A stretch of 64,000 nucleotides of DNA from NCBI RefSeq assembly GCF_003855255.1, contig NZ_CP034072.1, positions 1,054,001-1,118,000 on the forward strand, given 5' to 3'. The stretch comes from Mycolicibacterium nivoides. Lineage in GTDB: Bacteria > Actinomycetota > Actinomycetes > Mycobacteriales > Mycobacteriaceae. Positions 10,653 to 60,065 of this stretch are shown here, piece after piece. A model generated the notes under the pieces. The model saw only the letters and a program-made list of their open reading frames with translations, made no database searches and was not told the DNA's origin. How positions within the stretch are numbered: the first letter of the stretch is position 1; every line of letters begins with the position of its first letter. A program made the position numbers and the translations under genes.

Positions 10653-10774
10653 CGTCCTGACGGCAGGCGGACGCGGGGGTGGCTTCGGCGGCGCGCGCCC
10701 GCCGAAAGCCTGCTGCCAGTTCATGTTGCCCATATGGTGGGAACAGGCCGCTACGCCCCGACGTTAGGAAAAGT

Positions 10775-11149: not shown

Positions 11150-11167
11150 TGAGCGGCACGCGATAGC

Positions 11168-11998: not shown

Positions 11999-12022
11999 CA
12001 CAGACACCGAGGAGGACGCAGC

Positions 12023-13651
<1,629 letters not shown>

Positions 13652-14652: not shown

Positions 14653-17758
<3,106 letters not shown>

Positions 17759-37670: not shown

Positions 37671-37687
37671 TGCGCCGACCCCGATAC

Positions 37688-37726
37688 AAGCCGACCTGAC
37701 GGATGCCGTCAGGTCGGCTTTGTTCG
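37688..37726 (+). terminator. intrinsic terminator after lipL
   Basis: A 15-bp perfect stem (AAGCCGACCTGACGG at 37688-37702 pairing with 37706-37720) with a 3-nt ATG loop, followed by TGTTCG. The stem is GC-rich and very stable; the T-run is short, as usual in mycobacteria. It marks the end of the syntenic block. Confidence 0.75.
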
Positions 37727-37778
37727 TAGCGGTGGGTCTCAGTGGGCTGCCGGAGGCGGCCGCCGCGTTTCCAGCTGC

Positions 37779-37794
37779 AGTGATATGTATCACA
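37779..37794. promoter_or_regulatory. CRP-like palindrome
   Basis: AGTGATATGTATCACA fits TGTGA-N6-TCACA with one mismatch at the first base. This is the consensus bound by mycobacterial CRP (Rv3676) and corynebacterial GlxR. It is about 860 bp before the polyketide synthase and about 100 bp after lipL, so the controlled promoter is uncertain. Confidence 0.4.
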
Positions 37795-38056
37795 CAGTGT
37801 CCCAGATATGGGAGACCATTCCTGGTTACGCAGCGCTTCTCCGCCGTTAACCCAGGTCGGTTTGCTTTTCGATGCATGCAGTGGGCTCCCTCACGCGTTC
37901 GGGTGTGGCGTGCGCTGAGTCTCAGCGCGTTCGGCCTCGCTGCCTGATGGGCCCATCGCGGCCGTTGGGGGTTGCGAGCGTTTTGCGGATATTCATGATC
38001 GGCGCTGGTCGTTACGTTGCGGTGTCAACCAACGCCATTAGCCAATGCGGTTAATA

Positions 38057-38072
38057 GGTACACATTCGTACC
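38057..38072. promoter_or_regulatory. inverted repeat GGTAC-N6-GTACC
   Basis: A perfect 5-bp inverted repeat with a 6-bp AT-rich spacer, located in TTAATAGGTAC...GTACCATTATCT. TTAATA and TATCTG nearby could be promoter elements. Candidate operator for the lipid locus; no known family consensus is recognised. Confidence 0.3.
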
Positions 38073-38155
38073 ATTATCTGGACGCGCGTAAGCGGAACAT
38101 GAATGAGGTTCAGCTACGGTTTCGGGAGTTTGCGTGCCAGTGGCCAGCTAATTAA

Positions 38156-38632
38156 TTGAAGGTATCCTATGAATTAACTGGGAGCCGCGAATTGAACGCC
38201 GACTTCAAGGGATGGACAACCCATGAAAAGGTGTTTGATTGCCCGAAAATGGCGTGGCACTAGTTAGCGGGATAATTTCTGCCGCGGAGCGATGACTTCG
38301 AAGAAGCGACCCAATTAGCTTGGGCTGCACGAGCATTCATCGAATTTCTGGACAAGTCGCCGGACCTGCTGGGGTCTCGCTGGGGAAAGCGACTGCCGCT
38401 GTCAGTTTTCGACAATGGGTTCGTCCAGCGAACATGTGATCATTTTTGCGATCAGATGTTTCCAACATCTAGGTTGGGCCACGCGCTACGCTACGGACCC
38501 GCGTTGGCAACGACTCGAACCGGATACGGGGATTCGGTACCGTGCGTCGATGGCGACGTAGCGCACGTTCTTTTCCACGTCCTAAGTACGTTGATCGAAG
38601 CTTTGCTCATCGATCGCACCGAGAGAGGTTGA
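38156..38632 (+). pseudogene. decayed or frameshifted gene directly before the polyketide synthase
   Basis: Three coding-looking segments follow each other in different frames. From TTG 38156 the frame reads KVSYELTGSRELNADFK... to about 38240; the next frame reads PENGVALVSGIISAAER (38242-38292); then the first frame resumes with DDFEEATQLAWAARAFIEFL and stays open to TGA 38630-38632. In the first frame two stops (38261 and 38273) break the reading. The last segment ends 6 bp before the TTG of the synthase, with the synthase ribosome binding site inside it. Codon use is clearly less GC-rich at third positions than in neighbours. I do not recognise the family. It may be a pseudogene with two compensating indels, or a sequencing error in a live gene. 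Confidence 0.45.
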
Positions 38633-38638
38633 GCCGAC

Positions 38639-41600
38639 TTGGTCGAGACTCCAGTGACCCCGATTGCCGTACTCGGCATGGCATGCCGGCTACCCAACGG
38701 GATCGACTCGCCTGCCAAGTTGTGGGATGCATTGTTACGGGGCGACGACCTGGTCACCGAGGTTCCGCTCGACCGATGGGACGCCGAAGAGTTCTACGAC
38801 CCTGAAGCCGGGGTTGCCGGCCGGTCGGTGTCGAAGTGGGGTGGATTTCTCGACGACATCGGTGGTTTTGACGCCGACTTCTTCGGGATCGGCGAGCGTG
38901 AGGCGATTGCGCTCGATCCCCAACAGCGTCTGTTGCTCGAGACCTCTTGGGAGGCCATTGAGCACGGCGGTATCGACCCGGCCACTCTCGCAGGATCGTT
39001 GACCGGCGTCTTCGTCGGCATGACGGGCGCCGACTACCAATTGGTGGCCGCGGACGCCCAGGCTCTGGACGGGCCGTACGGCTTCACCGGAAGCAATTTC
39101 AGCATGGCGTCCGGCCGCATCGCATACGCGCTCGGCGCGACCGGGCCGGCCTACACCGTGGATTCCGCCTGCTCGTCAGGACTGCTCGCCGTGCACAACG
39201 CCTGCCGCAGCCTCCACGACGGCGAGAGTGACCTCGCGCTGGCCGGTGGAGTCAACGTCGTTCTGGAGCCACGCAAGATGGCATCGGGTTCCGCGCAGGG
39301 GATGCTGTCCCCGACAGGTCGTTGCCACGCATTCGATGTGGACGCGGACGGCTTCGTTTCGGGCGAAGCCGTCGGCATGGTGCTGCTGAAGCGACTTCCC
39401 GATGCGCTGCGGGACGGTGACCGGGTTCTCGCGGTGATCCGTGGTACGGCAGCCAACCAGGACGGGCGCACCGTCAACATCGCCACGCCGTCCCGTGATG
39501 CGCAGGTGGCCGTGTACCAGGCGGCGCTGGCCGCAGGGGCCACTGATCCCGCCACGATCGGGATGGTCGAAGCACACGGGACCGGTACTCCGGTCGGTGA
39601 TCCGATCGAGTACGCCGGACTGGCCCACGTCTACGGCACCGACGGCCCGTGCGCGCTCGGCTCGGCGAAGACCAACTTCGGCCACACTCAGTCGGCATCG
39701 GGCACCGTCAGCCTGATCAAGGCCGTGCTGGCCCTGCAGGAGGCGGTCGTTCCGCAGAGCCTGCATTTCAATCGGCTGCCCGACCAGATGGCCGAGATCG
39801 ACACAAACCTGTTCGTGCCACAGGCGAATGTGCCGTGGCCGGCGCCTGCCGGGCATCCGCGACGAGCGGCTGTGTCGTCCTACGGCCTTTCCGGAACCAA
39901 CGTCCACGCGATCGTCGAACAGGCACCGGAGTACCCGCCCGCCGTCACCGTCGAAGGCGGGGACGCGACACTTGCCCCGGCGGACGGCCCCAAGCTGTTC
40001 ACCATCTCCGCGAGCTCGGCCGAGGCGCTCAGGCAGACCGCGGGTCGCCTGGCCGACTGGGTCGCCGCTCAGGCGGACTCCGGCGAACTCACCGATCTCG
40101 GCTATACGCTCGCGCGTCGCCGCGGACACCGCGACGTCCGGACCTCTGTGCTGGCCGGCAGCCCGGAAGAACTCATCAAGGCCTTTCGCGAGGTGGCCGA
40201 CGGCGACGCCCCGTACCAGCCCGCGGTTGCTGCCGGTGGCCGTGGACCGGTCTGGGTGTTCTCCGGGCATGGATCGCAATGGGCCGGGATGGGCGCCTCC
40301 CTGCTGGCCGCCGAACCCGTCTTCGCGGCGACCGTGGCCGAACTCGAGCCGCTCATCGCCCGCGAGTCCGGGTTCTCGGTGACCGAGGCGATGTCGGCTT
40401 CCGAGGTCGTGACCGGGATGGACCGGGTCCAGCCGACGGTCTTCGCGATGCAGGTCGCGCTGGCTGCCACGATGAAGGCGTACGGGGTCAGCCCGGGCGC
40501 GGTGATCGGCCATTCGATGGGGGAGGCCGCCGCAGCCGTCGTCGCGGGTGCGCTGTCGGTCGAGGACGGCGTGAAGCTGATCTGCCGCCGGTCGCGTTTG
40601 ATGGCGCGCATTGCCGGATCCGGTGCGATGGCTTCGGTGGAACTGCCTGCGGCGCAGGTGCTTTCCGAACTCGCGGCTCAGGGTGTCGGCGACGTCGTGC
40701 TGTCGGTGGTGGCCTCGCCGCAGTCGACGGTGGTCGGCGGCGCAACCGAGTCGATCCGAAACCTGGTGGCAGGCTGGGAGAAGCGCGGCCTGTTGGCCCG
40801 CGAGGTGGCGGTCGAGGTGGCCTCGCATTCACCCCAGGTCGACCCCATCCTCGATGAACTGGCCGACGAGTTGGCGGATCTGTCCCCGATGGCGCCGACG
40901 GTTCCGTACTACTCGTCCACCCTGTATGACCCGCGCGAAGAACCCATGTGGGACGCGGACTACTGGGCCGACAACCTGCGATACACCGTGCGGTTCGCCG
41001 CGGCGGTGCAGGCCGCCCTCGAAGACGGCTACCGGGTGTTCGGTGAACTGTCGCCGCATCCGCTGCTGACCCTTGCCGTCGAGCAGACGGCCCGCAGCCT
41101 GGACATGTCGACCGCGGTCCTGGCCAGCATGCGGCGCGAGCAGGGGATGCCTTCGGGCCTGCGCGGTCTCGTCGGCGACCTTCACGATTCGGGTGCGGTC
41201 GTGGACTTCTCGGCGCTGTATCCCGACGGCCGCCTGGTCGAGGCACCGCTGCCGGCGTGGACCCACCGCACCCTGATGCTCGCCCGGGAAGGGCAGGACC
41301 AGCTGGGCCACGGTGGCCACAGCGTCGCGGTGCATCCGCTGCTCGGCGCACACGTCCTGCTGCCCGAGGACCAGGAACGCCACGTCTGGCAGGCGGACAT
41401 CGGCACCGCGGGGCAGCCATGGCTCGACGACCACCGGGTGCACGACGTGGCAGCCCTGCCCGGCGCGGCCTACTGCGAGATGGCGTTGACCGCCGCCGCA
41501 GGCGTTCTCGGTGACGGCGCGGAGGTGACCGACCTCGCGTTCCATGACCTGCTCCTGCTCGACGACCAGACGGTGGTGTCGACCACCGCGGCCGTCCTCA

Positions 41601-44600
41601 CCGATGGCGTTGCCGAATTCGGGATCGAAACCACCCGTGACGGCGAACGGGTCCGCCGCGCGTCTGCGCGACTGCAGACCGGCGAGGGGCCGGTGCCGCA
41701 GAGTCGCGACATCACTGTGCTGCTGGCTACCCACGCCGACCGCACGGACGGTGCGCAACTGCGGGAATCGTTTGCCGCGCACGGTATCCAGTACGGTCCG
41801 GCATTCGCCGGCCTGGTCTCGGCGGGAACCGGGGCCGGAGGGTCTGTGCTCGCCGAAGTCGCACTGCCGCCGGCACTTCGCTCGCAGCAGTCCGCCTATT
41901 CCGTCCACCCGGCGCTCCTCGATGCGTGCTTCCAGGCGGTTGCCGTGCATCCCGCGATCAGTGACGACTCGAACGGGGCATTGCTGCTGCCGCTGGGAGT
42001 ACGCAGGATTCGCGTGCACGCCTCCACCCGCCAGGCGCATTACTGCCTTGCGCAGGTCATGAAGGTCGGCGAGGCGTTGGTGGAAGCGGATCTGGAGATC
42101 CTCGACGAGCACGGAGCCGTTCTCGTCACGATCGACGGTCTGCGCCTCGGATCGCGCGCCGGAGCCTCCCGCCGCGATCACACGCTCAACAACCGCCTGC
42201 TGACCGTGGACTGGATCCAGCCGAGCCCGCCGAAGGCCGGTGACTTCGGCAACCGGTCGGTGTTGGTGGTGGATACGACCGAAGCGGGCAACCCGGTGTC
42301 GGGCGGCCTGGTGGCGGCACTGACATCGCAGGGTGTCACCGCCAGTCAGATGGCCTGGCCCACCGGCGCCGGCGATGCCGCTGCCCAAGCCGCGCTGGAA
42401 GCGCACCTCGAGAACGAGAACATCGGGGCCGTAGTGGTATTCGCTGGAGGGGAGCCGACCGTCGAGTCTGGCTCGGCCGCGGTGTCGCAAGGCGCCGACG
42501 AGGTTCGTCGGCTGGTGCGCATCGCCCGCCTGCTGCCCGAAGCCTCTGGTGCGCCCCGGCTCTATCTGCTGACTCGGAACGCGCAGTCCGTGCTCGAGGG
42601 TGACGTGGCCAACCTCGCCCAGGCTGGTCTGCGCGGCCTGATCCGGGTGATCGGGGTCGAGCACCCGCATCTGCATCCCACGATGGTCGATCTCGACGGC
42701 CACGCGGATGCCGGGCAGTTGGCCGCCCAGGTGCTGGCGGGATCCGAAGAGGACGAGACGGCTTGGCGGGACGGGGCTTTCTACGCGGCCCGCCTGAATC
42801 TCAGCCCGTTGGGCTCGGACGACTTCCGGTCCACCGTGGTGGACCACCAGCGCGACGGGGTCCGGCTACAGATCCGTACCCCCGGAGACCTGCAGTCGCT
42901 GGAACTGGCCGCCGTCGATCGAGTGGAGCCCGGACCCGGGCAGATCGAGGTCGCGGTACGCGCATCGAACCTCAACTTCGCCGATGTCCTTGTGGCACTG
43001 GGCCGGTACCCGAGTTTCGAGGGACGCATGCCGCAGCTCGGTGCCGACTACGCCGGCGAGGTCGTGGCGGTCGGACCTGGTGTGACCGAGCATGAGGTAG
43101 GCGACCTCGTGGCCGGTATCTCCACCAATGGCGCGTGGGCCACCTACATCACCTGCGACGCGAACCTCGCGGTCGCCCTGCCGCCGTCCTTGACCGCCGG
43201 ACAGGCGGCCGCGGTGCCCAGTGCGCACGCCACCGCGTGGTACAGCCTGCACAACCTGGCCAGAATCTCGTCGCGTGACAAGGTGCTGATTCACTCCGCC
43301 ACCGGTGGAGTCGGGCAGGCCGCCATTGCGATAGCCCGTGCGGCAGGCGCCGAGATCTTCGCCACCGCCGGAAGCCAACATCGGCGAGAGTTGCTGCGCG
43401 GCATGGGTATCACTCATGTGTATGACTCCCGCAGCATCGATTTCGCGGACCAGATCCGCCGCGACACCGATGGCTATGGCGTCGACATCGTGCTCAACTC
43501 ACTGCCGGGCGCCGCGCAACGGGCCGGCTTGGAACTGCTGTCATTCGGCGGGCGCTTCGTCGAGATCGGCAAGCGCGACATCTACGGAGACACCCGGCTC
43601 GGCTTGTTCCCGTTCCGGCGCAATCTGGCCTTCTACGCGGTGGATCTGGCGTTGTTGACGCTCACCGATCCCAACACCGTGCGTGACCTGTTGACGACGA
43701 TCTACCAGAACATCGCCGACGGTGTCCTGCCTGCGCCCGAAACCACGCACTACCCGCTGACCGACGGCGCCACGGCCATCCGCGTGATGGGGGCCGCCGA
43801 GCACACCGGAAAGCTGGTACTGGACGTGCCGCGCAGCGGTCAGGACCCCGCGGTGGTTCCCCCGTCGGAAGTCAAGACCTTCCGTGCCGACGGTTCGTAC
43901 GTCGTCACCGGCGGTCTGAGCGGCCTCGGGCTGTTCCTGGCCGAGAAGATGGCCGAAGCAGGTTGCGGCCGCATCGTTCTCAACGGGCGATCGGCACCCG
44001 GGCCCGCCGCGCAGTCGGTGCTCCGGCGGATTCGGTCGCACGGTGTCGAGGTCGAGGTGGAGCGCGGCGATATCGCGGACCCGGCCACTGCCCGGCGGCT
44101 GGTGGCGGCGGCGACGGCAACCGGCCTGCCCCTGCGGGGCGTTCTGCACGCGGCCGCCGTGGTCGAGGACGCGACACTGAACTCGATCACCGATGAACTG
44201 ATCGAGCGTGACTGGGCGCCGAAGGTCCGGGGTGCCTGGAATCTTCACGAATCGACGACGGATCAACCGCTGGACTGGTTCTGCTCGTTCTCCTCGGCGG
44301 CAGCCTTGGTCGGCTCGCCCGGCCAGGGGGCGTACGCGTCGGCCAACAGCTGGCTGGATGCCTTCGCCCACTGGCGCAAGGCCCAGGGGCTGCCTGCGAC
44401 GGCGATCGCATGGGGAGCCTGGTCCGAGATCGGGCAGGGGCAGAACCTGGCGCAGGACGAGGCCATGGCGATCCAGCCTGACGACGGTGCCTACGCGTTC
44501 GACTCGCTGCTCCGCCACGATCGGACTCACACCGGCTATGCGCCGGTGGCGGGTGCGCCATGGTTGGCGTCGTTCGCGCAGACCCGGCCGTTCGCCGAAG

Positions 44601-44923
44601 CGTTCCGGAACCTCGACAAGGGGCGCGCGGGTGGCAGCCAGTTCCTCGCCGAATTGCGGTCGATGCCGACCGAAGAATGGGCTGCCCGGCTGCGCCGGCT
44701 CATCTCGGATTCGATCAGCCTGATTCTGCGGCGATCGGTCGATCCCGACCGCCCGTTGTCGGAGTACGGGCTGGATTCCCTCGGCAACCTCGAGCTGCGT
44801 ACCCGGATCGAAACCGAGACCGGTATTCGGATCAGCCCGATGGGCATCACCACCATTCGGGCCCTTGCCGAGAGCTTGAGCGAAACGTTGGCCGCCGAAG
44901 CAACTGCTTCGACACCGTCATGA
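38639..44923 (+). CDS. Mas/Pks5-type iterative type I polyketide synthase (KS-AT-DH-ER-KR-ACP)
   Basis: 2094 residues from TTG 38639 with GAGAGAGG upstream. Domain order: KS 5-430 with C178 in [11 protein letters not shown] about 530-830 with S626 in GHSMGEA; DH from about 900 with H932; ER about 1430-1740 with HSATGGVGQ near 1552; KR about 1740-1920 with Y1899; ACP at 2010-2090 with S2047 in GLDSLGN. The AT specificity motif is VASH (727-730), as in methylmalonyl-specific domains, not HAFH. This is the layout of mycocerosic acid synthase, which elongates an acyl-AMP-loaded starter with methylmalonyl units to fully reduced methyl-branched acids. The AT has GHGSQW where GQGSQW is usual. There is no thioesterase, so a PapA protein should offload the product. 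Confidence 0.95.
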
Positions 44924-44950
44924 TGATCCGGAAGTAGAGCTAGGAGACAC

Positions 44951-46402
44951 ATGGTCGCCTTCGAAGCAATCCACGACTGGGTCGATGCGCCGGGCACGGT
45001 TGTCTCGTGGGAGCCCTCGGCTGCGACGCTCGCCAAAGTCGCCGAGGCCCCGATCAGCACGGTGCCGGTCAGCTATCAGCAGGCGCAGCATCTGCACGCA
45101 TACCGCGATCACGCCGCGAATGGGCGCAACATGGCGCGGTTGAACATCCCGTCGTGGAACATTGCGGGGCAGTGCGACATCCGCGCGATGACCCACGTCA
45201 TCAACGCCTACCTGCGGCGGCACGACACGTTCCACAGCCGGTTCGAGGATGACGGCGCGGGCGGGTTCGTCCGCCGCACGTTGGCCAACGCCCGCGATAT
45301 CAGGTTCACCCCGAAGAACCTCGCCGAGATGGCCGCGGAGGATTGGCGCTCGCATCTGCTCGCAACGCCGGATCCGCTGCAGTGGGACTGCTTTCGTTTC
45401 GGGATCATCCAGCGATCGGACCACTTCACGTTCTACCTGAGCGTCGACCACGTCCACGCGGACGCGATGTTCATGGGGGCCCTGTTCGTCGAGATCCACA
45501 TGATGTACGCGGCTCTGGTCGGCGGTGGCGCGCCGTTGCAGCTACCGGAAGCGGGCAGCTATCACGACTACTGCATCCGTCAGCGGGAGTACACCACCGG
45601 ACTCACGGTGGATTCGCCCGAGGTGCGGACGTGGATCGAGTTCGCCGAGCACAATTCCGGTAGCCTGCCGACGTTCCCGTTGCCACTCGGCGACAACGCG
45701 GAGGCCTGTGGCGGAGCGCTGCTGACGGTGCAATTGCTCGACGACGATCAGACCGAGCGATTCGAAGCCGTATGCGCCGCGGAGGGCACCCGGTTCAGCG
45801 GTGGCGTTTTCGCCTGCGCGGCAATGGCCGATCACAAGATCACCGGTGCGGGGATGTACCACGTGATCACACCCACGACCACCCGCAGAACGCCGGCCGA
45901 GTACATGACCACCGGATGGTTCACCGGACTGGTCCCGATCAGTGTGCCGGTGGCGGGATCGTCGTTCGGCGCGATCGCCCGGGCGGCGCAGGAATCATTC
46001 GACTCCCGTATCGATCTGGCGAATGTGCCGTTCGACCTCGTTTTGGAACTCGGTGCCGCGGCCGGTGTGCGAAAGCCGTCCTCCGGTGTTCCCATGCTGT
46101 CGTACCTTGATGCGGGGCTCCCGCCGCTGTCGCCCGCGATCATCGCGGAGTGGAATCAGCTCAACGGTCGCGTCTTCGCCGATGCCGGTGATGCGCACCA
46201 GGTCGGAATGTGGGTGAACCGGCTGGGCAGGGGAACCACCGTGACGGTCGCCTACCCCAACAACGCCGTCGCCCGGGAATCGGCGCTGCGGTACGTCGAG
46301 GCGATGAAGGCCGAGTACCTGGAAGTCGTGGCCGGACGTGTGGGCACCGTCTCGAGCAGCTCGCTGCCTGCGCTGGCAGCGCTGAGCTCGACGGTGAGTT
46401 GA
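44951..46402 (+). CDS. PapA-family polyketide-associated acyltransferase
   Basis: 483 residues with AGGAG before ATG 44951. It has the PapA start (an ITDW-like IHDWVDAPG, then VVSWEPS and PVSYQQAQHLHAYR) and RRHDTFHSRFEDD near 95. The catalytic motif reads HVHADA (H167, D171), with Ala where HxxxDG has Gly. The second half contains FTGLVPISVPV and DLANVPFDLVLELGAA. PapA proteins take the acyl chain from the synthase ACP or a CoA and esterify it to trehalose or another acceptor. Its place 27 bp after the synthase mirrors pks5-papA4, pks2-papA1 and pks3-papA3 pairs. Confidence 0.88.
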   Translation: MVAFEAIHDWVDAPGTVVSWEPSAATLAKVAEAPISTVPVSYQQAQHLHAYRDHAANGRNMARLNIPSWNIAGQCDIRAMTHVINAYLRRHDTFHSRFEDDGAGGFVRRTLANARDIRFTPKNLAEMAAEDWRSHLLATPDPLQWDCFRFGIIQRSDHFTFYLSVDHVHADAMFMGALFVEIHMMYAALVGGGAPLQLPEAGSYHDYCIRQREYTTGLTVDSPEVRTWIEFAEHNSGSLPTFPLPLGDNAEACGGALLTVQLLDDDQTERFEAVCAAEGTRFSGGVFACAAMADHKITGAGMYHVITPTTTRRTPAEYMTTGWFTGLVPISVPVAGSSFGAIARAAQESFDSRIDLANVPFDLVLELGAAAGVRKPSSGVPMLSYLDAGLPPLSPAIIAEWNQLNGRVFADAGDAHQVGMWVNRLGRGTTVTVAYPNNAVARESALRYVEAMKAEYLEVVAGRVGTVSSSSLPALAALSSTVS

Positions 46403-46426
46403 TCGGTGGGGCAGGAGGTTCGACCA

Positions 46427-47839: not shown

Positions 47840-47842
47840 CCG

Positions 47843-49216: not shown

Positions 49217-49316
49217 TGGCCGCCGGACCAATGCCCGCGACGTGCCGTCGCGGTCTGGATATCACCACATCGACAGGTCTGCGAATGCAGTCCGTCGAGC
49301 ACGAAAGGTATTTCAC

Positions 49317-51065: not shown

Positions 51066-52339
51066 TGGTCGGGTCGGTATCTGAGCGACGGGCCCGACTA
51101 CTCTCGTCGTCGGGCCCGGGCGGTGGCCGGGTGGCCGTCTACGCAGGCGTCGCGCTGCTGATCACTGCCTGGACGCTGGCCATCGTCTACATCGCGGCGT
51201 CGGTCGTTCCCATCGACCACTACCTGATCTCGTACTACGTGGTCGACTACCGCTTCGGCTTCACCCGGCGCGGTCTCGCCGGGGAGATCGTCGGAAATGT
51301 TTCTGACGCAGGGTTTTTCACCAACGCCTACCTCATGCGGTGGATCTCGACGGCGGTGTACGTGCTCGGCCTCGCCGCCCTGGCGTACAAGCTGCTCAGG
51401 AAGCGTCGGTCTGAACGCCGCATCATGGTGGCGCTGCTACTCGCCGTGCTGCCGTTCGGAATCCCGTACGCCGTGTACTCGGCCCGCCCCGATCTCTTCG
51501 GGGCGGTCGCCCTCATCGTCCTGTGCCTGGCGCTCACGACGGTCTCCAGGGCACGGTCAATGGTGTTGCGCTGTGGGCTGTTCGGGGCGGTCATCGCCGT
51601 GCTCGCCCTGATGCACGAGGGCATGGCGCTGGAGTTCGGGTTGGGCGCGATCCTGGCGATCCTGGTCCTCGGCCGCGGGCTGGCCGCGTCAGCGCAACGC
51701 CTCAGCGCCGCCCTGGCCATCGGACCAGGTCTGATCGTCGCGCTGATCGTGGCGGCGTTCGCCAATCACGATGTCAGCGGCAAGGTGTGCGGCACGGTCC
51801 CGCACCGCATGATCGAGACGCCGTTCGCGTCGATCAAGTCCTTCCCTGACCTGATCGCCTACTTCACCGGTGCCGTGCACAGCGACGCGGATTACCACGA
51901 CTGGGTTTGCGGCTGGTATCTGTCCACCTTCGATCACACCGTCACCGACGGGATGAGAGAGGTGGCCGCGGTCGGACTGCCCGCGCTGGTCGGATCGTTC
52001 GTGTTGGGTGCCGTGGGGGTTGCCCTGACGCTCCGCGCGGTGAGTTACTTCTCCGGGGTATCCCTGCGCAGCTTCGTCGGCGAGCTGAACGGTCGGTACG
52101 CCCTGCCTGCCGCGGGTGCGTTGCTGATGGTGCCGCTGTTCATCACCGGTGTCGACTGGACCCGCTGGCTTCTCGTCGTCGCGTTCGACGTGGTGGTGGT
52201 CTACGTCCTGTACGCGAACGGGCGACCCGAGATCGACGAGACGCCGCCGAAACGCGCAGTGCGTCTGTTTCCCCTCGTGGCACTCGGATTCATGCTGATC
52301 CCGCTGGGCCTGGCTCCCGGTGGTGGCTCCACGAGGTAG
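51065..52339 (+). CDS. polytopic membrane protein of the lipid locus
   Basis: 424 residues from GTG 51065, which overlaps the FAAL stop by one base (TAGTG); the longer frame runs inside fadD and is rejected. About nine to ten hydrophobic helices are seen, starting with VAVYAGVALLITAWTLAIVY. Between the first two is DYRFGFTRRGLAGEIVG with clustered Arg residues, and a non-membrane loop of about 60 residues (CGTVPHRMIETPFASIKSF...) has paired cysteines C-G-T and VCGWY. I do not recognise the family. It is last in the synthase operon and may take part in export or modification of the lipid. Confidence 0.75.
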   Translation: MVGSVSERRARLLSSSGPGGGRVAVYAGVALLITAWTLAIVYIAASVVPIDHYLISYYVVDYRFGFTRRGLAGEIVGNVSDAGFFTNAYLMRWISTAVYVLGLAALAYKLLRKRRSERRIMVALLLAVLPFGIPYAVYSARPDLFGAVALIVLCLALTTVSRARSMVLRCGLFGAVIAVLALMHEGMALEFGLGAILAILVLGRGLAASAQRLSAALAIGPGLIVALIVAAFANHDVSGKVCGTVPHRMIETPFASIKSFPDLIAYFTGAVHSDADYHDWVCGWYLSTFDHTVTDGMREVAAVGLPALVGSFVLGAVGVALTLRAVSYFSGVSLRSFVGELNGRYALPAAGALLMVPLFITGVDWTRWLLVVAFDVVVVYVLYANGRPEIDETPPKRAVRLFPLVALGFMLIPLGLAPGGGSTR

Positions 52340-52366
52340 CCGTTACGAGGTAGTCGTTCGTGCCGG

Positions 52367-52807
52367 CTACCCGAACGGCCATGGCGGGGGTGGCAATCCC
52401 GGCGGCGGCGGGGGTGGCGGCAATCCCGGCGGCGGCGGAGGTGGCGGCAGGTCCTGCGGAGACGGCAGTTGAGGCCCCGGCAGGCCCAACCCGGGCAGCG
52501 CAGGCAGGGGAAGCCCCGGCGGACCGACCGACACCGGCACGCTCACCTGGACCGGAGCCGGCAGGTCGGACGGCCACGGTCCCGGTTCCGGAATCGGGCC
52601 GACCTGTGCCAGTACCTGTTGCACTTCCGGTGTACACGTCGGGCACTGCAGCATCGGTGCGTCGTTCTGGGCGTCGCGGTTCGCGGCGTTCTCGATCGCC
52701 TGCGGATCGACGGGATCCGCGTGTGCGACGCCGCACGCGAGTGCGTACATGGCAGCGCCGACCGTGGCGACCCCGGCCGCTCTCAGCAGCCTGTGCGGGA
52801 AATTCAC
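52367..52807 (-). CDS. small proline-rich secreted protein
   Basis: 146 residues from GTG 52807 with GAGGGAG upstream. A signal peptide (NFPHRLLRAAGVATVGAAMY then ALACGVAHADP) is followed by a short domain with two cysteines (LQCPTCTPEVQQVLAQVGP). The rest is a proline-rich tail with runs of six to eight Pro broken by Gly-Leu, ending in PPPPWPFG. It could be an extracytoplasmic partner of the lipid exporter, but this rests only on location. It converges with the membrane gene at 51065 and is followed upstream by the Gap-like gene on the same strand. Confidence 0.75.
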   Translation of the reverse strand: MNFPHRLLRAAGVATVGAAMYALACGVAHADPVDPQAIENAANRDAQNDAPMLQCPTCTPEVQQVLAQVGPIPEPGPWPSDLPAPVQVSVPVSVGPPGLPLPALPGLGLPGPQLPSPQDLPPPPPPPGLPPPPPPPGLPPPPWPFG

Positions 52808-52857
52808 CGAGTGCTCCCTCGATTGGAATGTCTTTCGATCATAGTGGTTTCGAATGT

Positions 52858-53556
52858 TCACAGCCCCGCCGCACCAAGTGCGACAAGCGCCGTTCCGGCC
52901 AGCGTCAGGATCAACGCGACGTCCCGCCGGGTGCGGGTGTGGACCCAGGCTCGCATGGCCTCCAACCGGGCACGGGTCGCGGCGGGCGCCACCAGGAAAC
53001 TGGCGATGGGAATGGCCACGACAGTATTGGCGACCGCGACGAAGGTGATGAGCAGGCCCAGCTGGAGCGACGGTGTGGCTCCGGACGTGGCGATCAGGAC
53101 CAGCAGGGCCAGATAGTCGATGGAGGGCAGGGCGATTGCCAAACCCATCGCTCCCGAGAACCAGGGTGAGCTGCCACCTACCAGGTTCTTGACCTTGGAG
53201 GTCACAAACGCGACAGTCCGAGTCTGGCCCGGAAGTCGAGGCTCGCCCGCGGCATCGGGAGTGCGGGAGAACTGGCCGAGCGGCACCTTGCTCGCCAACA
53301 CGGCCGCCGCGAGCACCGCGACCACACCGAACGCGATCTGAACCTTCGCGGTGCTGAACTGCGGAGCCCCCAGCATCGCGGGACGCACCACGAACAACAC
53401 GATCAGCCCCGCCGTGACGCTCATGAGAAAGCTGCCGGACAGGAATGCCATCAGCTGCAGCGCAGGCCTCGGCCTGCCGAGCGCCAGAGTGATCAGACCG
53501 AGCCGGATCGGCTCGAAGTTCACCGCGATGGCAAGGCCAAGGACGGTGATCCACAC
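52858..53556 (-). CDS. Gap/Sap-family lipid-addressing membrane protein
   Basis: 232 residues from GTG 53556; the longer frame starts in the divergent gene region. About six hydrophobic helices are seen. The start VWITVLGLAIAVNFEPIRLG (up to residue 20) and RPRPALQLMAFLSGSF are typical of the GPL-addressing (Gap) and sulfolipid-addressing (Sap) proteins, which are required for surface display of glycopeptidolipids and sulfolipids. A soluble loop near 90-125 contains KVKNLVGGSSPWFSG. In known loci the gene sits beside mmpL and pks, as it does here. It probably works with MmpL at 54967. Confidence 0.85.
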   Translation of the reverse strand: MWITVLGLAIAVNFEPIRLGLITLALGRPRPALQLMAFLSGSFLMSVTAGLIVLFVVRPAMLGAPQFSTAKVQIAFGVVAVLAAAVLASKVPLGQFSRTPDAAGEPRLPGQTRTVAFVTSKVKNLVGGSSPWFSGAMGLAIALPSIDYLALLVLIATSGATPSLQLGLLITFVAVANTVVAIPIASFLVAPAATRARLEAMRAWVHTRTRRDVALILTLAGTALVALGAAGL

Positions 53557-53629
53557 ATCAACGGACCTTACTCGAATCGATGGCACGGTGGCCCGGCCCC
53601 GAAGGCCGGCCACGATCTACCATGCCGAC

Positions 53630-54958: not shown

Positions 54959-54966
54959 GATCCGGG

Positions 54967-57900
54967 TCAGTCCGCGACGGCCGCCAGTTCCTGCTCGGGC
55001 TCGGTGTTCTCGGATTTCTTCGGGGGCGCCTTCACTTCCGGCCGCCAGCGCGACGGCCACCAATTGAATCGACCCACCAGAACGGCGATTGCCGGCACGG
55101 TCGTGGTACGCACCAGGAACGTATCGAGCAGGATTCCCACACCGATGATGAAACCGGCCTGCACCAGTGTGCTGATGCTGGCGAACAGCATTCCGAACAT
55201 GGACGCGGTGAAGATCAGGCCCGCCGCGGTGATCACACCTCCGGTTGCGCCCACCGTTCGGATCACCGCGGTTCGCAAGCCGTGTGGCGATTCTTCCCGG
55301 ATCCGAGAGATCAGCAGCAGGTTGTAGTCGGCACCGACCGCGACCAGGATGATGAATGTCAGTCCGGGCACGCTCCAGTGCAATTCCTGACCCAGCAGCT
55401 CTTGGAACAGCAGTACCCCGATGCCGAGCGCCGATAGGTATGAAATCACCACGGAGGCAATCAGATAGAGCGGCGCCACCAGGGCGCGCAGCAGGACCAC
55501 CAGGATGAGGAACACCACGGCGACCGTCACCAGGATGATGAATCGGATGTCCTCGTTGTAGTACTCACGCGTATCGCGGAGCGACACCGAGTATCCGGTC
55601 ATCGACACCTTGGCGTCGGCGAGCGTCGTGTTCGGTTGAGCATCGCGAGCGACGTCGAGAATCGCGTTGATCTGATCCATGGCATCGGTGCTGAACGGGT
55701 TGAGCTTGGTCTGGATCATGTACCGCACGGTGTGACCGTCGGGGGAGAAGAACAGCGCCGCAGCCTTTTTGAAGTCATCGGTGGCCAGGAACTGTGGCGG
55801 CACGTAGAACCCTGACATGGACGGTGTCCTGGCCTCGTTCTTCATCGCGAGCAGGAATGCCGACGCGTCGCCGAGTCCGCCGCCCATCTTCTTGGTCTCG
55901 TTGACCAGCAGGCCGACACCGTCGGCCACCTGCCGGCTGGCCTCGGCGAGCGTGTCCGCGTGCTGCTGCAGCGTGGCCATCTGCTGCCGCATGCTCGACG
56001 GATTGTCCAGGCCGGCCGAATTCAGTGCTTTGGTGGCGGTGTCGAACGCACCCCGGAGATTGTCGGTCGTCGCACCGAGGGTCTGGTTGCCCTCGGTCGC
56101 CTTCAACTGCCTGGCCAACTGGGCGATGCCGGCCAGGGTGCCGTTGTCGCCGGCGTCGACCATGCGTTGCAGCTGCCCACGGGAGTTGCGGCAGGACGGA
56201 TCCACATCGCAGATCGGGCTGGCGTTCAGCGCGGTCAGGACCGGCCGGGCCTGCTGGACGGAGTCGGCGGCATCGTCGAGGGTCACGCCGATGGAGTCGC
56301 CGAGCGATCGCATCGCGAGGACCAGCTTGGCCGCACTGTCGAACTGGTTGAGCGCCTTGTCGCCACCGAACTGTTTCTGCATGGAGCTCAACGCGTCGAT
56401 CAGACCGCTGACTGTGACCGCTGCCTGGCCCAGCTGCCCCTTCACCCCGCCGAGTACATCGGCGATCTGGCTGGCGCCGCTGGCCAGCTTGTCCATGTCG
56501 CCGCCCCGCTCGGAGACCACCGAGGAGGCGTCGTTGAGTTTGGAACCGACCTCGCCGGCCTGGAACGACAGCCTGGCCTGCTCCAACGACTCTCCCGTGG
56601 GGCGGGTGATCCCGCGAACCGCTTCGATGTTGGGCAGCTGACTGATGCGGTGGGCCATCTGTTCGAGGTCGGCGAGCTCCTTGGGGCCGCGCAGATCGTG
56701 TGGTGATTCGATCAGGAGATACTGGGGCAGGCTGGAATTCACCGGGAAGTGTGCGGCGATCGCGTCATATCCCTGGAGGCTCTCGACGGTGCCGGGGAGC
56801 GCCTTGCGGTCGTCGTAGTTGTACCTCGCCAGGCCCGCGCAACTGGCGAGCACCACCAACAGCATCAGGCTGGCGATCAGGTTGCGCCGCGGATTTCGCA
56901 CGATCCGCACACCCGACCGTCGCCACAGCGTGTTCGTGAGGCTCTTACGCGGCGAGACCCAACCGCGGCGGCCCGCCAGGGTGAGCACCGCCGGCAGGAA
57001 GGTCATGGCGGCCAGGCAGCCGATGGCGATGGCGACGGCGAGCGCCACTCCGACCGATGAGAAGATCGTCAGTTTGGTGAAGATCATCCCGATGAAGGTG
57101 ACGGCCACAGTGGCTGCCGACGCGACGATCACCGGGCCGATCGAGTGCAAGGCGCTCTTGACGGCCTTGTCGGAATCCTCACCGAGCCGTAGAAAGTCGT
57201 GGTACCGGCTGATCAGGAAGACCGCGTAATCGGTTCCGGTGCCGGCCAGCATCGCGGTGAGAAAGACGATGGTCTGGCCGGAGATGGCAAGGCCGAGACT
57301 GCCCAATGCGGCCACGACGCCCTGCGCGGTCGCCAGCGATACCCCGATGGTCAGCAGCGGCAGGATCATCGTCAGCGGATTGCGGTAGATGATGATCAAG
57401 ATCGCCAGGAGCATGCCCACCGTGGCGATTTCGATGTGCACACGGTCGCGTTCGCCCACCTCGGCGAGGTCGGCAAGCGTGGCCGCCGGGCCCGTCACAT
57501 GCGCGGTGATTCCGGATCCGCCGCCGCCCACGGTGTCTTTGACGATCCGGACGACGTTCGACGTCGCGGTGTAGGACTGCGGTGAGCCCAGTTCGCCGGT
57601 CAGGCTGACCGGCAGTAGCCACGCCTTGCCGTCCTGACTGCTCATCACCTGGCGCAGCGGCGGTGTGGTGATGAAATCCTGCATTGTCACGACGCTCGCG
57701 GTGTCGGCGCGCAATTTGTCGACGAGGCTGCGGTAGACGGTCTCGTCGGCGCCGTCCAGGCCGTTCTCGTCACTCAAAACGACCAGCAGGATGTTGTCCG
57801 ACCCGGACTCGTGAAATGCCTGCGACATCTGTTGGGCGGCAACGGACCCAGGTGCGTCGGCCGGAAGCATGGCCGGAGGGGTCTTCTGGGAGAGTTCGGT

Positions 57901-58047
57901 CAGCGAGGGGAACATCGGGGGGAGCGCGGCGGCGAGCACCACCCAGAACGCGATCACCAGCCAGGGCCACCGAACGACGACACCGCCCAGCAAGTGGAAC
58001 GTGCCGCTCTCGGGGTTGTCCGCGCTGCCGCGCAGGCGTCGCAACAA
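54967..58047 (-). CDS. MmpL-family (RND superfamily) lipid transporter
   Basis: 1026 residues from TTG 58047 with AGGG 8 bp upstream and a TAG stop shortly before. It shows the MmpL layout: one N-terminal helix, a periplasmic domain, a helix bundle with the proton-relay motif GTDYAVFLISRYHDF, a large second loop of about 340 residues (430-770) and a second bundle with GADYNLLLISRIREE. The C-terminus is short and Glu/Ala-rich. It is closest in character to MmpL8, MmpL10 and MmpL12, which export sulfolipid, acyltrehaloses and LOS-type lipids. Together with the Gap-like protein it should move the product of the locus across the membrane. Confidence 0.95.
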   Translation of the reverse strand: MLRRLRGSADNPESGTFHLLGGVVVRWPWLVIAFWVVLAAALPPMFPSLTELSQKTPPAMLPADAPGSVAAQQMSQAFHESGSDNILLVVLSDENGLDGADETVYRSLVDKLRADTASVVTMQDFITTPPLRQVMSSQDGKAWLLPVSLTGELGSPQSYTATSNVVRIVKDTVGGGGSGITAHVTGPAATLADLAEVGERDRVHIEIATVGMLLAILIIIYRNPLTMILPLLTIGVSLATAQGVVAALGSLGLAISGQTIVFLTAMLAGTGTDYAVFLISRYHDFLRLGEDSDKAVKSALHSIGPVIVASAATVAVTFIGMIFTKLTIFSSVGVALAVAIAIGCLAAMTFLPAVLTLAGRRGWVSPRKSLTNTLWRRSGVRIVRNPRRNLIASLMLLVVLASCAGLARYNYDDRKALPGTVESLQGYDAIAAHFPVNSSLPQYLLIESPHDLRGPKELADLEQMAHRISQLPNIEAVRGITRPTGESLEQARLSFQAGEVGSKLNDASSVVSERGGDMDKLASGASQIADVLGGVKGQLGQAAVTVSGLIDALSSMQKQFGGDKALNQFDSAAKLVLAMRSLGDSIGVTLDDAADSVQQARPVLTALNASPICDVDPSCRNSRGQLQRMVDAGDNGTLAGIAQLARQLKATEGNQTLGATTDNLRGAFDTATKALNSAGLDNPSSMRQQMATLQQHADTLAEASRQVADGVGLLVNETKKMGGGLGDASAFLLAMKNEARTPSMSGFYVPPQFLATDDFKKAAALFFSPDGHTVRYMIQTKLNPFSTDAMDQINAILDVARDAQPNTTLADAKVSMTGYSVSLRDTREYYNEDIRFIILVTVAVVFLILVVLLRALVAPLYLIASVVISYLSALGIGVLLFQELLGQELHWSVPGLTFIILVAVGADYNLLLISRIREESPHGLRTAVIRTVGATGGVITAAGLIFTASMFGMLFASISTLVQAGFIIGVGILLDTFLVRTTTVPAIAVLVGRFNWWPSRWRPEVKAPPKKSENTEPEQELAAVAD

Positions 58048-58213
58048 CTGTGCTGCCCTACTGATCCTGCATGTCCTTACCTACTTCGCCATCGAGCGCG
58101 TCAGACGGGTCGTCCCGGCGCTCGATGTGACGGGCGACGCTTTCAGTGCGCCCAGTGTATGTGGTGTCCCGGACCGGCCGGGTGGGCTCGCTCTGCCTGT
58201 GTGCCCGCTGTGG

Positions 58214-58948
58214 TCACCGATTGCTCGGCGCCAGCCACCGGGTCTTGATTCGCCAGGAGTGTGCCGAAGCGAGCGCGAAGATGGCGCCGCAGGCACACGC
58301 GAAAACCCACACCAGGCGACCGTTCTCGATGGGCTGCAACGCCGGTACCAGAGACGTGACGATCCGGGTCGTGCAGGCGAGCATCCCGCTCACCGACGCG
58401 AACAGGTAGATGTTGGCGATCCGGCGGGACTTCGGATCGCGGCGGAGCACCAGCATGGCGCGGGCCCCGTAGCCCAGCAGGTAGAGCAGGGTGCCGCAGA
58501 GCAAGATCCAGTAGGCGCTGAGCCAGAAGTCCGTCGGGACCTGGAAGAAGTCGGGCCGGTACACCGCGGCACCGTTGCCCATCGAGAAGGTGGCCAGCAA
58601 GACGGGGATGCAGATGGTGGCCGGGCGCTCCACGTACTGCTTGAAGGAGCGCTGCATGGCGTTGTCGTCCTGGAGGCGGCCCAGGGAGTTGTAGACGATT
58701 GCCGACGCCGCCACGATGTAACAGTCGTGTCCGATGTAGTCCTCGACGTTCCACTTGCCGGTCAGCGTGTAGAGAACCTGGCCGATGGTTTCCGAGGCCC
58801 ACGGTGACATCAGCAGCACCGCCACGCCCTGCAGGGCGATGTTCAGAGTGGCGGCCACTTCCCACCGGCAGGACCAGGTGACTCTCCTGATCCACAGGCT
58901 CCACATGATGCAACTCAGTGTGATGGCGATGAGTGTGGCGATGGACAT
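58214..58948 (-). CDS. polytopic membrane protein of unknown function
   Basis: 244 residues with seven or so hydrophobic helices, starting SIATLIAITLSCIMWSLW. Between helices are EDYIGHDCYIVAASAIVYNS and a charged GRLQDDNAMQRSFKQYVERP stretch. The C-terminal end is basic. I do not recognise the family. It lies 45 bp downstream of a small regulator gene on the same strand, so the two are likely co-transcribed. Helix-turn-helix plus membrane protein pairs of this kind occur in actinobacteria, but no function is assigned. Confidence 0.75.
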   Translation of the reverse strand: MSIATLIAITLSCIMWSLWIRRVTWSCRWEVAATLNIALQGVAVLLMSPWASETIGQVLYTLTGKWNVEDYIGHDCYIVAASAIVYNSLGRLQDDNAMQRSFKQYVERPATICIPVLLATFSMGNGAAVYRPDFFQVPTDFWLSAYWILLCGTLLYLLGYGARAMLVLRRDPKSRRIANIYLFASVSGMLACTTRIVTSLVPALQPIENGRLVWVFACACGAIFALASAHSWRIKTRWLAPSNR

Positions 58949-58993
58949 GACAATTTGCCTCGGACGGTGGTGCGGATGGAGCCGGAGCGCCGG

Positions 58994-59362
58994 TTACAGC
59001 GGGGGCGCGTCGTGTCGTGGGGTCAGTTGGGACAGTTTCTTGGGCCGGTGCACGGCAGGCCGGACTCGGGTGGCGGTGTCCACGGGAGCCACCGTCACCG
59101 GCGACGATTCCATGTAGTGCCAGACTTCCTGGCGACTCATCAGGCCGAACCGGATCTGCAGATCCGGATAGCTGAGGTGGAAGCGGTCGGCGACCTGCCG
59201 CAATTCCTCGGCGTTGGGATAGTCGGCTTCTTTGACGCGCCGGTAGTACGTGCTGCTGGATACTCCCAGTGCGCTGTACACGGCCTTGGCGTCGACCTCG
59301 CCGTCCAGCAGATAGTCCAGCAGGGCCTTGAGCTGCCTGCCGTTCTCGTCGGTTCGCGGCAT
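58994..59362 (-). CDS. small helix-turn-helix regulator
   Basis: 122 residues from ATG 59362. The frame extends further upstream, but that part covers the promoter and is rejected. The N-terminal MPRTDENGRQLKALLDYLLD leads to a helix-turn-helix AKAVYSALGVSSSTYYRRVK at about 25-45, then NAEELRQVADRFHLSYPDLQ, an arrangement like XRE/Cro-type repressors. The C-terminus is basic and Pro/Thr-rich. A TATTGT -10-like hexamer ends 6 bp before the ATG, so the mRNA may be leaderless. It probably controls itself and the divergent gene through the palindromes between them. Confidence 0.82.
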   Translation of the reverse strand: MPRTDENGRQLKALLDYLLDGEVDAKAVYSALGVSSSTYYRRVKEADYPNAEELRQVADRFHLSYPDLQIRFGLMSRQEVWHYMESSPVTVAPVDTATRVRPAVHRPKKLSQLTPRHDAPPL

Positions 59363-59431
59363 CAGAACACAATAGACCCCGAGCCCGGAGTTGGTCGCAG
59401 CGAACCGCAGCAAAGCCAGCAGTGGCGTTAT

Positions 59432-59498
59432 TGACAACGCTGTCAGACTTTTGGCACAGCTCTCCCATTTTTGGGAAACTCTGTCTAACGTGACATAT
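59432..59498. promoter_or_regulatory. divergent promoter with three inverted repeats
   Basis: Site 1 is TGACA-N4-TGTCA at 59432-59445. Site 2 is TCCCA-TTTT-TGGGA at 59463-59476. Site 3 is TGTC-N6-GACA at 59482-59495. Sites 1 and 3 share the TGTCA half-site. TAACGT (59486-59491) is a good -10 ending 7 bp before the ATG at 59499, so that gene would be leaderless and site 3 lies over its -10. These are likely operators of the small regulator at 58994. Confidence 0.55.
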
Positions 59499-60065
59499 AT
59501 GTCTGTTTCCGTCCTGCCCGACGCATATGGCACCGGTTCGTGGATCGCCGACTACGCCACCGTCGGACCGCCGGCCGTCTCGGATATGGCAACTGTGTCC
59601 GGTGCACTGGACGACGTGTTGTCAGCGGAGCTGGACGGAGCCCAGACCGCGATGGGCTGCACGGCCGAGGATCTGCTGCTGGCCGCCCTCGGCCGGGCAG
59701 TCGCCCGCGCGATCGGTGACGGTGTTTTGACCGTCGATGTCGTGAGCGGTCCCGAGAGGGCCGGATATCGCCGCGTCGGAGTGCCCTGTGTGTCACATCG
59801 TGGCCTGTCGGGGCCCGAATTGCTGGCCGTGGCACGGCCGGGGGTCGGCACCGGTGACCACCCGTCGGCGGACATGAGCTTCGCGTACGGAGAGGGGCCG
59901 CGGGCAGGGCAGTCCGACCATCCGCTGGCGCTGCACATCCATCGCGATACCGAGACCACCATGCACCTGCACTGGCGGTTCGACAGCCGCAGATTCGACC
60001 ATTGCACGGTCGACGAGCTGGCCGAGCAGTTTCCGCTGGCCCTGATCGAGGTCACCTCCGGTTAG
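59499..60065 (+). CDS. stand-alone half condensation-domain-like protein
   Basis: 188 residues from ATG 59499; the longer frame covers the promoter. The part TAEDLLLAALGRAVARAIG near 50 and the end LHWRFDSRRFDHCTVDELAE resemble the C-terminal lobe of non-ribosomal peptide synthetase condensation domains. No HHxxxDG motif is present, so it lacks the catalytic half and is not expected to be an active acyltransferase alone. It could bind or regulate a partner such as the acyltransferase paralogues. It is divergent from the small regulator and probably under its control. Confidence 0.7.
   Translation: MSVSVLPDAYGTGSWIADYATVGPPAVSDMATVSGALDDVLSAELDGAQTAMGCTAEDLLLAALGRAVARAIGDGVLTVDVVSGPERAGYRRVGVPCVSHRGLSGPELLAVARPGVGTGDHPSADMSFAYGEGPRAGQSDHPLALHIHRDTETTMHLHWRFDSRRFDHCTVDELAEQFPLALIEVTSG

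What the first reader, a model, noticed from the sequence alone, without database searches (positions are those of the whole stretch)
37723..60065. A Mas-like PKS/FAAL/PapA/Gap/MmpL lipid locus of unknown product between lipL and ileS
The sequence shows one operon with a methylmalonyl-type iterative PKS, a PapA, two tandem acyltransferase paralogues, a FAAL and a membrane protein. Next to it lie a proline-rich secreted protein, a Gap/Sap-like protein, a third acyltransferase paralogue and an MmpL. Known families say this makes and exports a methyl-branched acyl ester lipid. In M. tuberculosis the same interval between lipL and ileS carries the pks5-papA4-mmpL12 (LOS) remnant. The locus here has no glycosyltransferase, no methyltransferase and three extra acyltransferase-like genes, so it may make a different poly-acylated lipid on a premade acceptor such as trehalose. 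That product is inference.
Basis: partly seen in the sequence, partly recalled or inferred. Interest (0 to 1): 0.75.

Follow-up and report, generated by a model that had tools for sequence, protein, structure and literature searches.

The report
Variant mycobacterial surface glycolipid (LOS-type) locus
This is a mycobacterial gene cluster that most likely makes and exports a heavily acylated, trehalose-based surface glycolipid; its core is that of known lipooligosaccharide clusters, but the usual soluble sugar-adding enzymes are missing and a predicted membrane-embedded one sits in the operon.

Summary
The window lies in a Mycobacterium genome whose PKS is nearest to that of M. setense. The core pks-papA-AT-AT-FAAL, with a Sap-like gene and an MmpL, is also that of the LOS cluster of two close relatives of M. 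smegmatis, found through the PKS. So the tandem acyltransferases are LOS-type core genes, not oddities. A natural hybrid genome (G020) joins a core 89-91% identical to that of M. senegalense to the window-type tail.

Best reading: a LOS-type locus whose lipid is acylated by PapA and AT1-3, exported by MmpL/Sap, and probably glycosylated outside the membrane by this GT-C. Fold is predicted; activity, sugar, acceptor and product are untested. New variant of a known kind.

The parts
37671..38638 (.). AT-rich intergenic region upstream of the PKS; candidate Lsr2-type silencing target
   Evidence: GC 0.563; holds the lowest 500-base GC of the 64-kb window (0.522; mean 0.666, sd 0.029); in the 9 relatives I chose the lowest 500-base GC of the first 4 kb is 0.498-0.554, at 1450-1650 in 8 of 9. 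Lsr2 binding upstream of MSMEG_4727 is from passages of PMC8125055; for the window it is inference
38639..44923 (+). iterative Mas/Pks5-type polyketide synthase (KS-AT-DH-ER-KR-ACP)
   Evidence: Pfam; NCBIfam NF041183 (Pks2-type name) 3464 bits, cut-off 2400; KS-AT 69.6% identical to the M. smegmatis MAS-like PKS and 67.7% to M. tuberculosis MAS
44951..46402 (+). PapA acyltransferase
   Evidence: PF00668; PapA2 structure 6aef 538 bits
46406..47839 (+). acyltransferase AT1 (condensation/PapA/WS-DGAT fold, HxxxD motif)
47843..49216 (+). acyltransferase AT2, tandem paralogue of AT1 (53%)
49242..51065 (+). fatty acyl-AMP ligase (FAAL, FadD23/28-like); start approximate
51065..52339 (+). polytopic membrane protein (PF27463), predicted GT-C glycosyltransferase; start from the 424-residue database entry P0001
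   Evidence: precomputed PF27463, and UniRef names with 'Glycosyltransferase RgtA/B/C/D-like' on four listed relatives; model pLDDT 91.6; VIA matches
52367..52807 (-). small secreted proline-rich protein; start approximate
   Evidence: signal-like N terminus and Pro-rich tail; kept in window-type loci
52858..53613 (-). Sap/Gap-like integral membrane protein
   Evidence: PF11139 138 bits
53597..54958 (+). acyltransferase AT3, third paralogue (45% to AT1); start approximate
54967..58047 (-). MmpL RND-type lipid exporter
   Evidence: PF03176 608 bits; TIGR00833 971 bits

Best explanation
A LOS-type acyl-trehalose glycolipid locus at a conserved mycobacterial chromosomal site (lipL to ileS). FAAL activates a fatty acid as acyl-AMP and loads the iterative PKS, which extends it with methylmalonyl units. 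PapA puts a branched chain on a sugar acceptor, most likely trehalose. AT1, AT2 and AT3 add further acyl chains, perhaps one each. MmpL, with the Sap-like protein, moves the lipid across the inner membrane. The membrane protein, a GT-C-type enzyme, then adds a sugar from a polyprenyl-phosphate donor on the outer face, in place of the soluble GT28/GT2 enzymes of other LOS-type loci. Shown here: gene content, shared core, modular exchange with a LOS-type core, predicted folds. Inferred from families: FAAL, PKS, PapA and MmpL roles. Inferred only: trehalose as acceptor, which chain each AT adds, the GT-C reaction, its side and its sugar.
For: The order pks-papA-AT-AT-FAAL plus sap and mmpL recurs in G344 and G077, whose PKS is 96% identical to a 309-residue fragment of the M. 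smegmatis MAS-like PKS; deleting MSMEG_4727 in an lsr2 mutant removes a glycolipid spot read as LOS (PMC8125055 passages). pks, papA and two or more AT genes lie together in 64 of 78 fetched loci, 47 of these with a lipL homologue in the stretch (loci were chosen by AT similarity). Hybrid G020: core 89-91% identical to M. senegalense and 80-91% to M. houstonense, tail of window type (70-90%, 75-87%; tree). M. houstonense is named as a LOS producer (PMC7261415 passage). GT-C. No GT28 above 33% identity genome-wide in G327, G124, G020, G166, four of the nine memb-carrying genomes among the 11 searched. PF27463 relatives lie in the same 20-kb stretch as a papA in 20 of 40 neighbourhoods I chose. 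M. marinum work infers that LOS is finished outside after MmpL12 export (PMC12507525 abstract and passages).
Against: No product, acceptor or activity is known to me for any window-type strain. Foldseek gives no match at E 0.001 or better for the GT-C model and ranks a GPCR first; the top VIA Z, 10.2, is in the range where the tool warns of chance for helical bundles; the GT-C fold also occurs in PIG-U, which is not a glycosyltransferase. The acidic residue is N or S in 4 of 44 rows. In the KS-AT tree the window PKS is not in the M. smegmatis clade, and NCBIfam names it after the sulfolipid PKS Pks2. Eight of 28 right-closed core loci show no homologue of GT28, GT2 or memb (other GT families were not sought), so an unglycosylated acyl-trehalose is possible. 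The mmpL is inverted and 48-56% identical to the plus-strand mmpL of other core loci. Six GT28 genes elsewhere in the window's genome could act in trans. In M. smegmatis the lipids reported to change with the island were acylated PIMs (PMC11139207 passages).
Confidence: 0.6

Rival explanations
1. The locus makes an unglycosylated poly-acyl trehalose (DAT/PAT/TPP-like). The membrane protein is not a sugar transferase, or acts on something else.
For: No soluble GT among the window proteins scanned. Eight of 28 right-closed core loci show no GT28, GT2 or memb homologue. Up to four acyltransferases are present. Pks2-type NCBIfam hit above its cut-off. Foldseek alone does not recognise the membrane protein.
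Against: The membrane protein aligns best with GT-C enzymes and follows FAAL directly in the window, L009-L011, L059, L128, G020 and G124; in L012/G166 a lipL-like gene lies between. The hybrid G020 pairs the tail with a core of M. senegalense/M. houstonense type.
Confidence: 0.25
2. An ordinary LOS whose sugars are added by soluble glycosyltransferases encoded elsewhere in the genome; the membrane protein has a side role.
For: The genome carries six GT28 genes at 52-56% identity in two distant clusters that look like GPL clusters.
Against: Four of nine memb-carrying genomes searched (G327, G124, G020, G166) have no GT28 above 33% identity. One of the two clusters in the window's genome also holds two mmpL-like genes, an AT homologue and a 5576-residue NRPS-like frame, so its GT28 genes probably serve another lipid.
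Confidence: 0.15
3. The acceptor is not trehalose (for example a PIM or a peptide), so the locus is a new lipid class built with LOS parts.
For: In M. smegmatis the derepressed island raises acylated PIM levels (PMC11139207 passages). A related papA-ABC2-AT-GT-C arrangement lacks a Mas-like PKS in the stretch.
Against: Close kin clusters are reported to make LOS, and the core is interchangeable with one of M. senegalense/M. houstonense type.
Confidence: 0.1

Closest known systems
M. smegmatis LOS cluster MSMEG_4727-4741 (seen here through relatives G344 and G077)
   Same: pks-papA-AT-AT-FAAL order, a Sap-like gene, a large MmpL; the window's AT-rich upstream region recalls the Lsr2-bound region of M. 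smegmatis (PMC8125055 passages)
   Different: The G344 cluster carries GT2, PE-PPE, pyruvyltransferase, two methyltransferases and GT28. Neither genome has the GT-C protein, no third AT was labelled in the fetched stretches, and no lipL or ileS was found within the 36-38 kb fetched
M. senegalense / M. houstonense type locus (L048, L076)
   Same: lipL on the left, same core, FAAL, AT3, Sap-like gene, MmpL
   Different: Has a soluble GT28, no GT-C and no proline-rich gene detected; mmpL on the other strand and 56% identical; core genes 51-78% identical to the window's
M. marinum / M. kansasii LOS loci
   Same: Pks5-type PKS, FAAL and MmpL; PapA in M. marinum; final glycosylation of M. marinum LOS inferred to be outside the membrane (passages of PMC12507525, PMC4403928, PMC13354803)
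   Different: Several GT-A-type glycosyltransferases and sugar-modifying genes are listed there; not compared gene by gene here
GT-C glycosyltransferases PimE, AftB, ArnT, ALG12
   Same: Predicted fold over model residues 16-422; two short helices between the first two long helices with an acidic residue after the first
   Different: 8-13% identity in these rows; substrate and donor unknown
DAT/PAT and TPP loci
   Same: PKS, PapA, FAAL, MmpL on a trehalose acceptor (recalled)
   Different: Carry no AT1/AT2-type tandem and no GT-C (recalled, not tested here)

Membership tests
mycobacterial LOS biosynthesis locus | Mas/Pks5-type iterative PKS | tested here: met
mycobacterial LOS biosynthesis locus | PapA acyltransferase and FAAL beside the PKS | tested here: met
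mycobacterial LOS biosynthesis locus | MmpL exporter in the locus | tested here: met
   orthology to MmpL12 not established
mycobacterial LOS biosynthesis locus | Gene order shared with a characterised LOS cluster | tested here: met
   core only, and through close relatives of M. smegmatis, not M. smegmatis itself
mycobacterial LOS biosynthesis locus | Glycosyltransferase(s) that extend the trehalose | tested here: inconclusive
   no soluble GT found; a predicted GT-C protein is present
mycobacterial LOS biosynthesis locus | Product is a glycosylated acyl-trehalose | not testable with these tools
   needs lipid chemistry
GT-C glycosyltransferase | GT-C fold | tested here: met
GT-C glycosyltransferase | Catalytic Asp/Glu in the first outer loop | tested here: inconclusive
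   D61 in 40 of 44, N in 3, S in 1; the position fits PimE D58 as described in PMC12041525 passages; residues were not superposed
GT-C glycosyltransferase | Sugar transfer from a polyprenyl-phosphate donor | not testable with these tools
   needs an enzyme assay
PapA/WS-DGAT-like acyltransferases (AT1-AT3) | Condensation-type fold and HxxxD motif | tested here: met
   fold tested for AT1 only; H and D in 29 of 29 rows including AT2 and AT3; the residue before the His is Ser (28) or Ala (1), not His
GPL Atf acetyltransferases (AT1-AT3) | Ten-TM membrane protein | tested here: not met
   AT1 models as a condensation-type fold; Atf is described with ten putative TM domains (PMC10400925 passage)
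DAT/PAT locus | pks3/4-papA3-mmpL10-fadD21 set with Chp2 (recalled) | not tested
   no named M. tuberculosis loci were fetched
TPP locus | PE gene beside pks, papA3, mmpL10, fadD23 | not tested
   gene list seen in a table passage of PMC1885439, where it is given as part of the GPL locus

The most novel reading that the evidence does not exclude
PF27463 proteins are a family of outer-face, polyprenyl-phosphate-sugar-dependent GT-C glycosyltransferases that finish exported acylated glycolipids in mycobacteria: the class of enzyme that the M. marinum mmpL12 work inferred but, in the passages I read, did not name. In the window-type locus one such enzyme, with AT3, Sap and its own MmpL, forms an exchangeable decoration-and-export cassette that plugs into different LOS-type cores.
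Probability: 0.35. Interest if true: 0.65.

Novelty: new variant of a known kind. Interest (0 to 1): 0.5.

Why it matters
Surface glycolipids of this kind affect colony form, host contact and phage adsorption: in M. smegmatis the derepressed LOS island reduces phage adsorption, and five of its genes, deleted one at a time, were each needed for resistance (PMC11139207 passages). If the reading holds, the locus shows that LOS-type clusters are modular (core, decoration, export). It gives a named candidate family for the extracellular glycosylation step and makes that step testable with one enzyme. It also links to LOS-type lipid assembly an acyltransferase family that has matches at E 0.001 or better in 343 of 396 sampled mycobacterial genomes (30 of the 343 are weak, worse than 1e-20, by my count of the rows). 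No held paper names MSMEG_4729 or MSMEG_4730, the likely M. smegmatis counterparts by position.

Tried and rejected
AT1-3 as GPL Atf acetyltransferases: an AT homologue (genome 1222416-1223810) lies in a GPL-like cluster, so I first took the family for Atf. PMC10400925 describes Atf as a protein with ten putative TM domains (passage), so I dropped this. What the homologue does there is not explained.

Gene predictions in relatives come from a simple ORF/GC3 script and miss or mis-start some genes (for example AT1 in G344, and Sap and the proline-rich gene in G020); gene presence was therefore counted from tblastn. The 78 loci were found by AT similarity (best 80 of 353 relatives), so the count of core loci with an AT pair cannot show how many LOS loci lack it; many are cut by contig ends, and none reaches more than 10 kb past the match. 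GT counts are for the 28 right-closed core loci and for homologues of the G344 GT28 and GT2 and of memb only. The 40 neighbourhoods were chosen by me from the list (113 of 396 genomes with a match), mostly high-scoring or single-contig ones, not at random; window-clade copies were left out. The GPL-like reading of the clusters at 1.21-1.25 and 5.86-5.88 Mb rests on gene order and script labels, without Pfam scans.
Full report
WHAT IS THERE. The window is part of a 6.9-Mb single-contig Mycobacterium genome. The nearest named relative of the PKS is M. setense (95% over KS-AT). Between lipL (36369-37670) and ileS (60226-63564) lie, in order: an AT-rich gap; pks, papA, at1, at2, faal and a membrane protein, all on +; a small proline-rich secreted protein and a Sap-like protein on -; at3 on +; mmpL on -. 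Two long ORFs in the plain ORF list (52360-53169 +, 58143-59468 -) are shadow frames with the wrong codon-position GC. Genes 58214-58948 (-), 58994-59533 (-) and about 59490-60065 (+) precede ileS also in loci that lack the window's tail genes, so I treat them as neighbours.

THE CORE IS A LOS-TYPE CORE. A scan of named genomes with the acyltransferase (AT) alignment gave 78 loci (501 pattern matches, 353 relatives, best 80 kept). By tblastn, 64 of the 78 hold pks, papA and at least two AT genes; 47 of these 64 have a lipL homologue in the stretch, in L012 inside the cluster rather than beside it; 17 of 64 have three AT copies. The other 14 loci are AT copies in other settings or are cut by contig ends. 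Because the loci were found by their AT genes, this count is biased. A check from the PKS side: a 309-residue KS fragment of the M. smegmatis MAS-like PKS (PDB 5bp1; passages of PMC12370991; its identity with MSMEG_4727 is recalled) was searched in 396 genus genomes. Each of the 12 best matches has an AT match about 7-9 kb downstream; among the next rows, one of two G335 copies and G262 have none listed. The two best, G344 and G077 (96%), carry pks-papA-AT-AT-FAAL, then GT2, sap, PE-PPE, pyruvyltransferase, two methyltransferases, GT28 and mmpL (Pfam names from G344, and G077 has a similar gene layout). Deleting MSMEG_4727 in an lsr2 mutant removes a glycolipid spot read as LOS (PMC8125055 passages). 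So the tandem AT pair between PapA and FAAL belongs to LOS-type cores.

WHAT DIFFERS. The window lacks the GT2, pyruvyltransferase, methyltransferases and GT28 of those clusters. The full window set occurs in M. setense (L009), Mycolicibacterium sp. CBMA 247 (L010), M. fortunisiensis (L059) and G327 (L128) and, as far as its contig goes, in M. porcinum (L011). ACS4331 (L012, G166) has a related set with no AT3 or proline-rich gene detected and with a lipL-like gene between faal and the membrane protein.

NO SOLUBLE GT IN TRANS IN SOME CARRIERS. Among 11 genomes searched, nine carry the membrane gene. The GT28 of G344 finds homologues of 52-57% in five of these nine (G000, G119, G299, G049, G141); in G000 they lie in two distant clusters that look GPL-like. 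In G327 and G020 the best is 31-33%; in G124 and G166 there is none.

MODULARITY. G020 has a core (pks fused with papA, AT, AT, FAAL) 89-91% identical to M. senegalense L048 and 80-91% to M. houstonense L076, but 52-66% to the window; the fused frame matched L048 over 2058 of 2595 residues, so papA was not measured alone. Its membrane protein, AT3 and MmpL are 75-87% identical to the window's, whereas in L048 and L076 the first is absent and the others are 54-59%. By tblastn with window proteins its tail is 70-90% identical, with the proline-rich and Sap genes at 74% and 76%. The breakpoint lies between faal and the membrane protein. The quick PKS tree puts G020 beside M. senegalense. A near relative, G124, keeps the tail but has lost pks, papA and both AT genes except a 5' PKS remnant joined to faal. 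M. houstonense is the fortuitum-complex member named as a LOS producer (PMC7261415 passage), and some M. senegalense strains have acyl-trehalose LOS (PMC4021744 passage). I read this as the window tail working with a LOS-type core.

WIDER FAMILY. PF27463-like genes occur in 113 of 396 genus genomes at E 1e-30. Of 40 neighbourhoods I chose from these, 20 hold a papA (43-64% to the window's) within the 20-kb stretch and 26 hold a papA, AT or mmpL homologue (counted from its printed rows). In 17 of 40 an AT lies between papA and the PF27463 gene without a Mas-like PKS in the stretch (L233 has only distant PKS frames). In this arrangement an ABC2-type exporter often lies between papA and AT: single linkage groups 13 loci, two of them LOS-type, and one member was scanned. 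The other 14 neighbourhoods show no papA, AT or mmpL homologue; four of these hold ileS and a pyruvyltransferase homologue.

REGULATION AND ROLE. The 968 bases before the PKS hold the lowest GC of the window (0.522 per 500 bases against mean 0.666, sd 0.029), and the nine relatives checked have a similar dip, in eight at the same place. In M. smegmatis, Lsr2 binds upstream of MSMEG_4727, and derepression of the island reduces phage adsorption; five genes deleted singly were each needed for resistance (PMC8125055 and PMC11139207 passages). The lipids reported to change in the second paper are acylated PIMs. A like regulation and role here is inference.

MECHANISM. Cytosolic assembly (FAAL, PKS, PapA, AT1-3), export (MmpL, Sap), then sugar addition outside by the GT-C protein. 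Outside completion of LOS was inferred for M. marinum from an mmpL12 mutant, with polyprenyl-linked donors proposed (PMC12507525 abstract and passages). My search for papers joining LOS and GT-C terms returned four; I saw passages of three of them (PMC12041525, PMC7261415, PMC4403928), and none of those passages names a GT-C enzyme for LOS. MKAN27435, a LOS gene of M. kansasii, is a GT-2 family protein that may make a polyprenyl-linked sugar (PMC4403928 passages).

VERDICT. A new variant of the LOS-type locus. The interesting point is the candidate GT-C enzyme.

Noticed in passing
L196/L197 (G124), joined reversed coordinates 16184-18100: Natural loss of pks, papA and both AT genes: a 638-residue open frame joins a 5' PKS remnant to FAAL while the tail genes remain.
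   Followed up: partly
L194/L195 (G020), joined reversed coordinates 4730-12517: The PKS and PapA appear as one 2595-residue open frame.
   Followed up: no
e.g. L243:5408-11072: A recurrent arrangement papA - ABC2 exporter - AT3-like - PF27463 GT-C, without a Mas-like PKS in the stretch; product unknown.
   Followed up: partly
G115:C1:2070127-2071119 and G075:C1:989272-989826: Two 3.3-Mb genomes hold degraded copies of the PF27463 gene with seven and two stops.
   Followed up: no
L124/L166 (genome 1213-1252 kb): GPL-like cluster (two mmpL-like genes, AT homologue, three GT28, a 5576-residue NRPS-like frame) in the same genome; the role of the AT homologue there is unknown to me.
   Followed up: partly
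L122/L123 (genome 3850-3886 kb): A second Mas-like PKS (65% identical) with FAAL and an mmpL-like gene upstream, and a sap-like gene and long frames downstream.
   Followed up: no
window 58214-60065: A trio before ileS shared with many other loci: 244-aa protein, 179-aa protein with weak HTH hits, and a short protein weakly like the end of a condensation domain.
   Followed up: no
L076:1-8000: The M. houstonense PKS is predicted in three pieces in this draft; sequencing error or real break was not examined.
   Followed up: no
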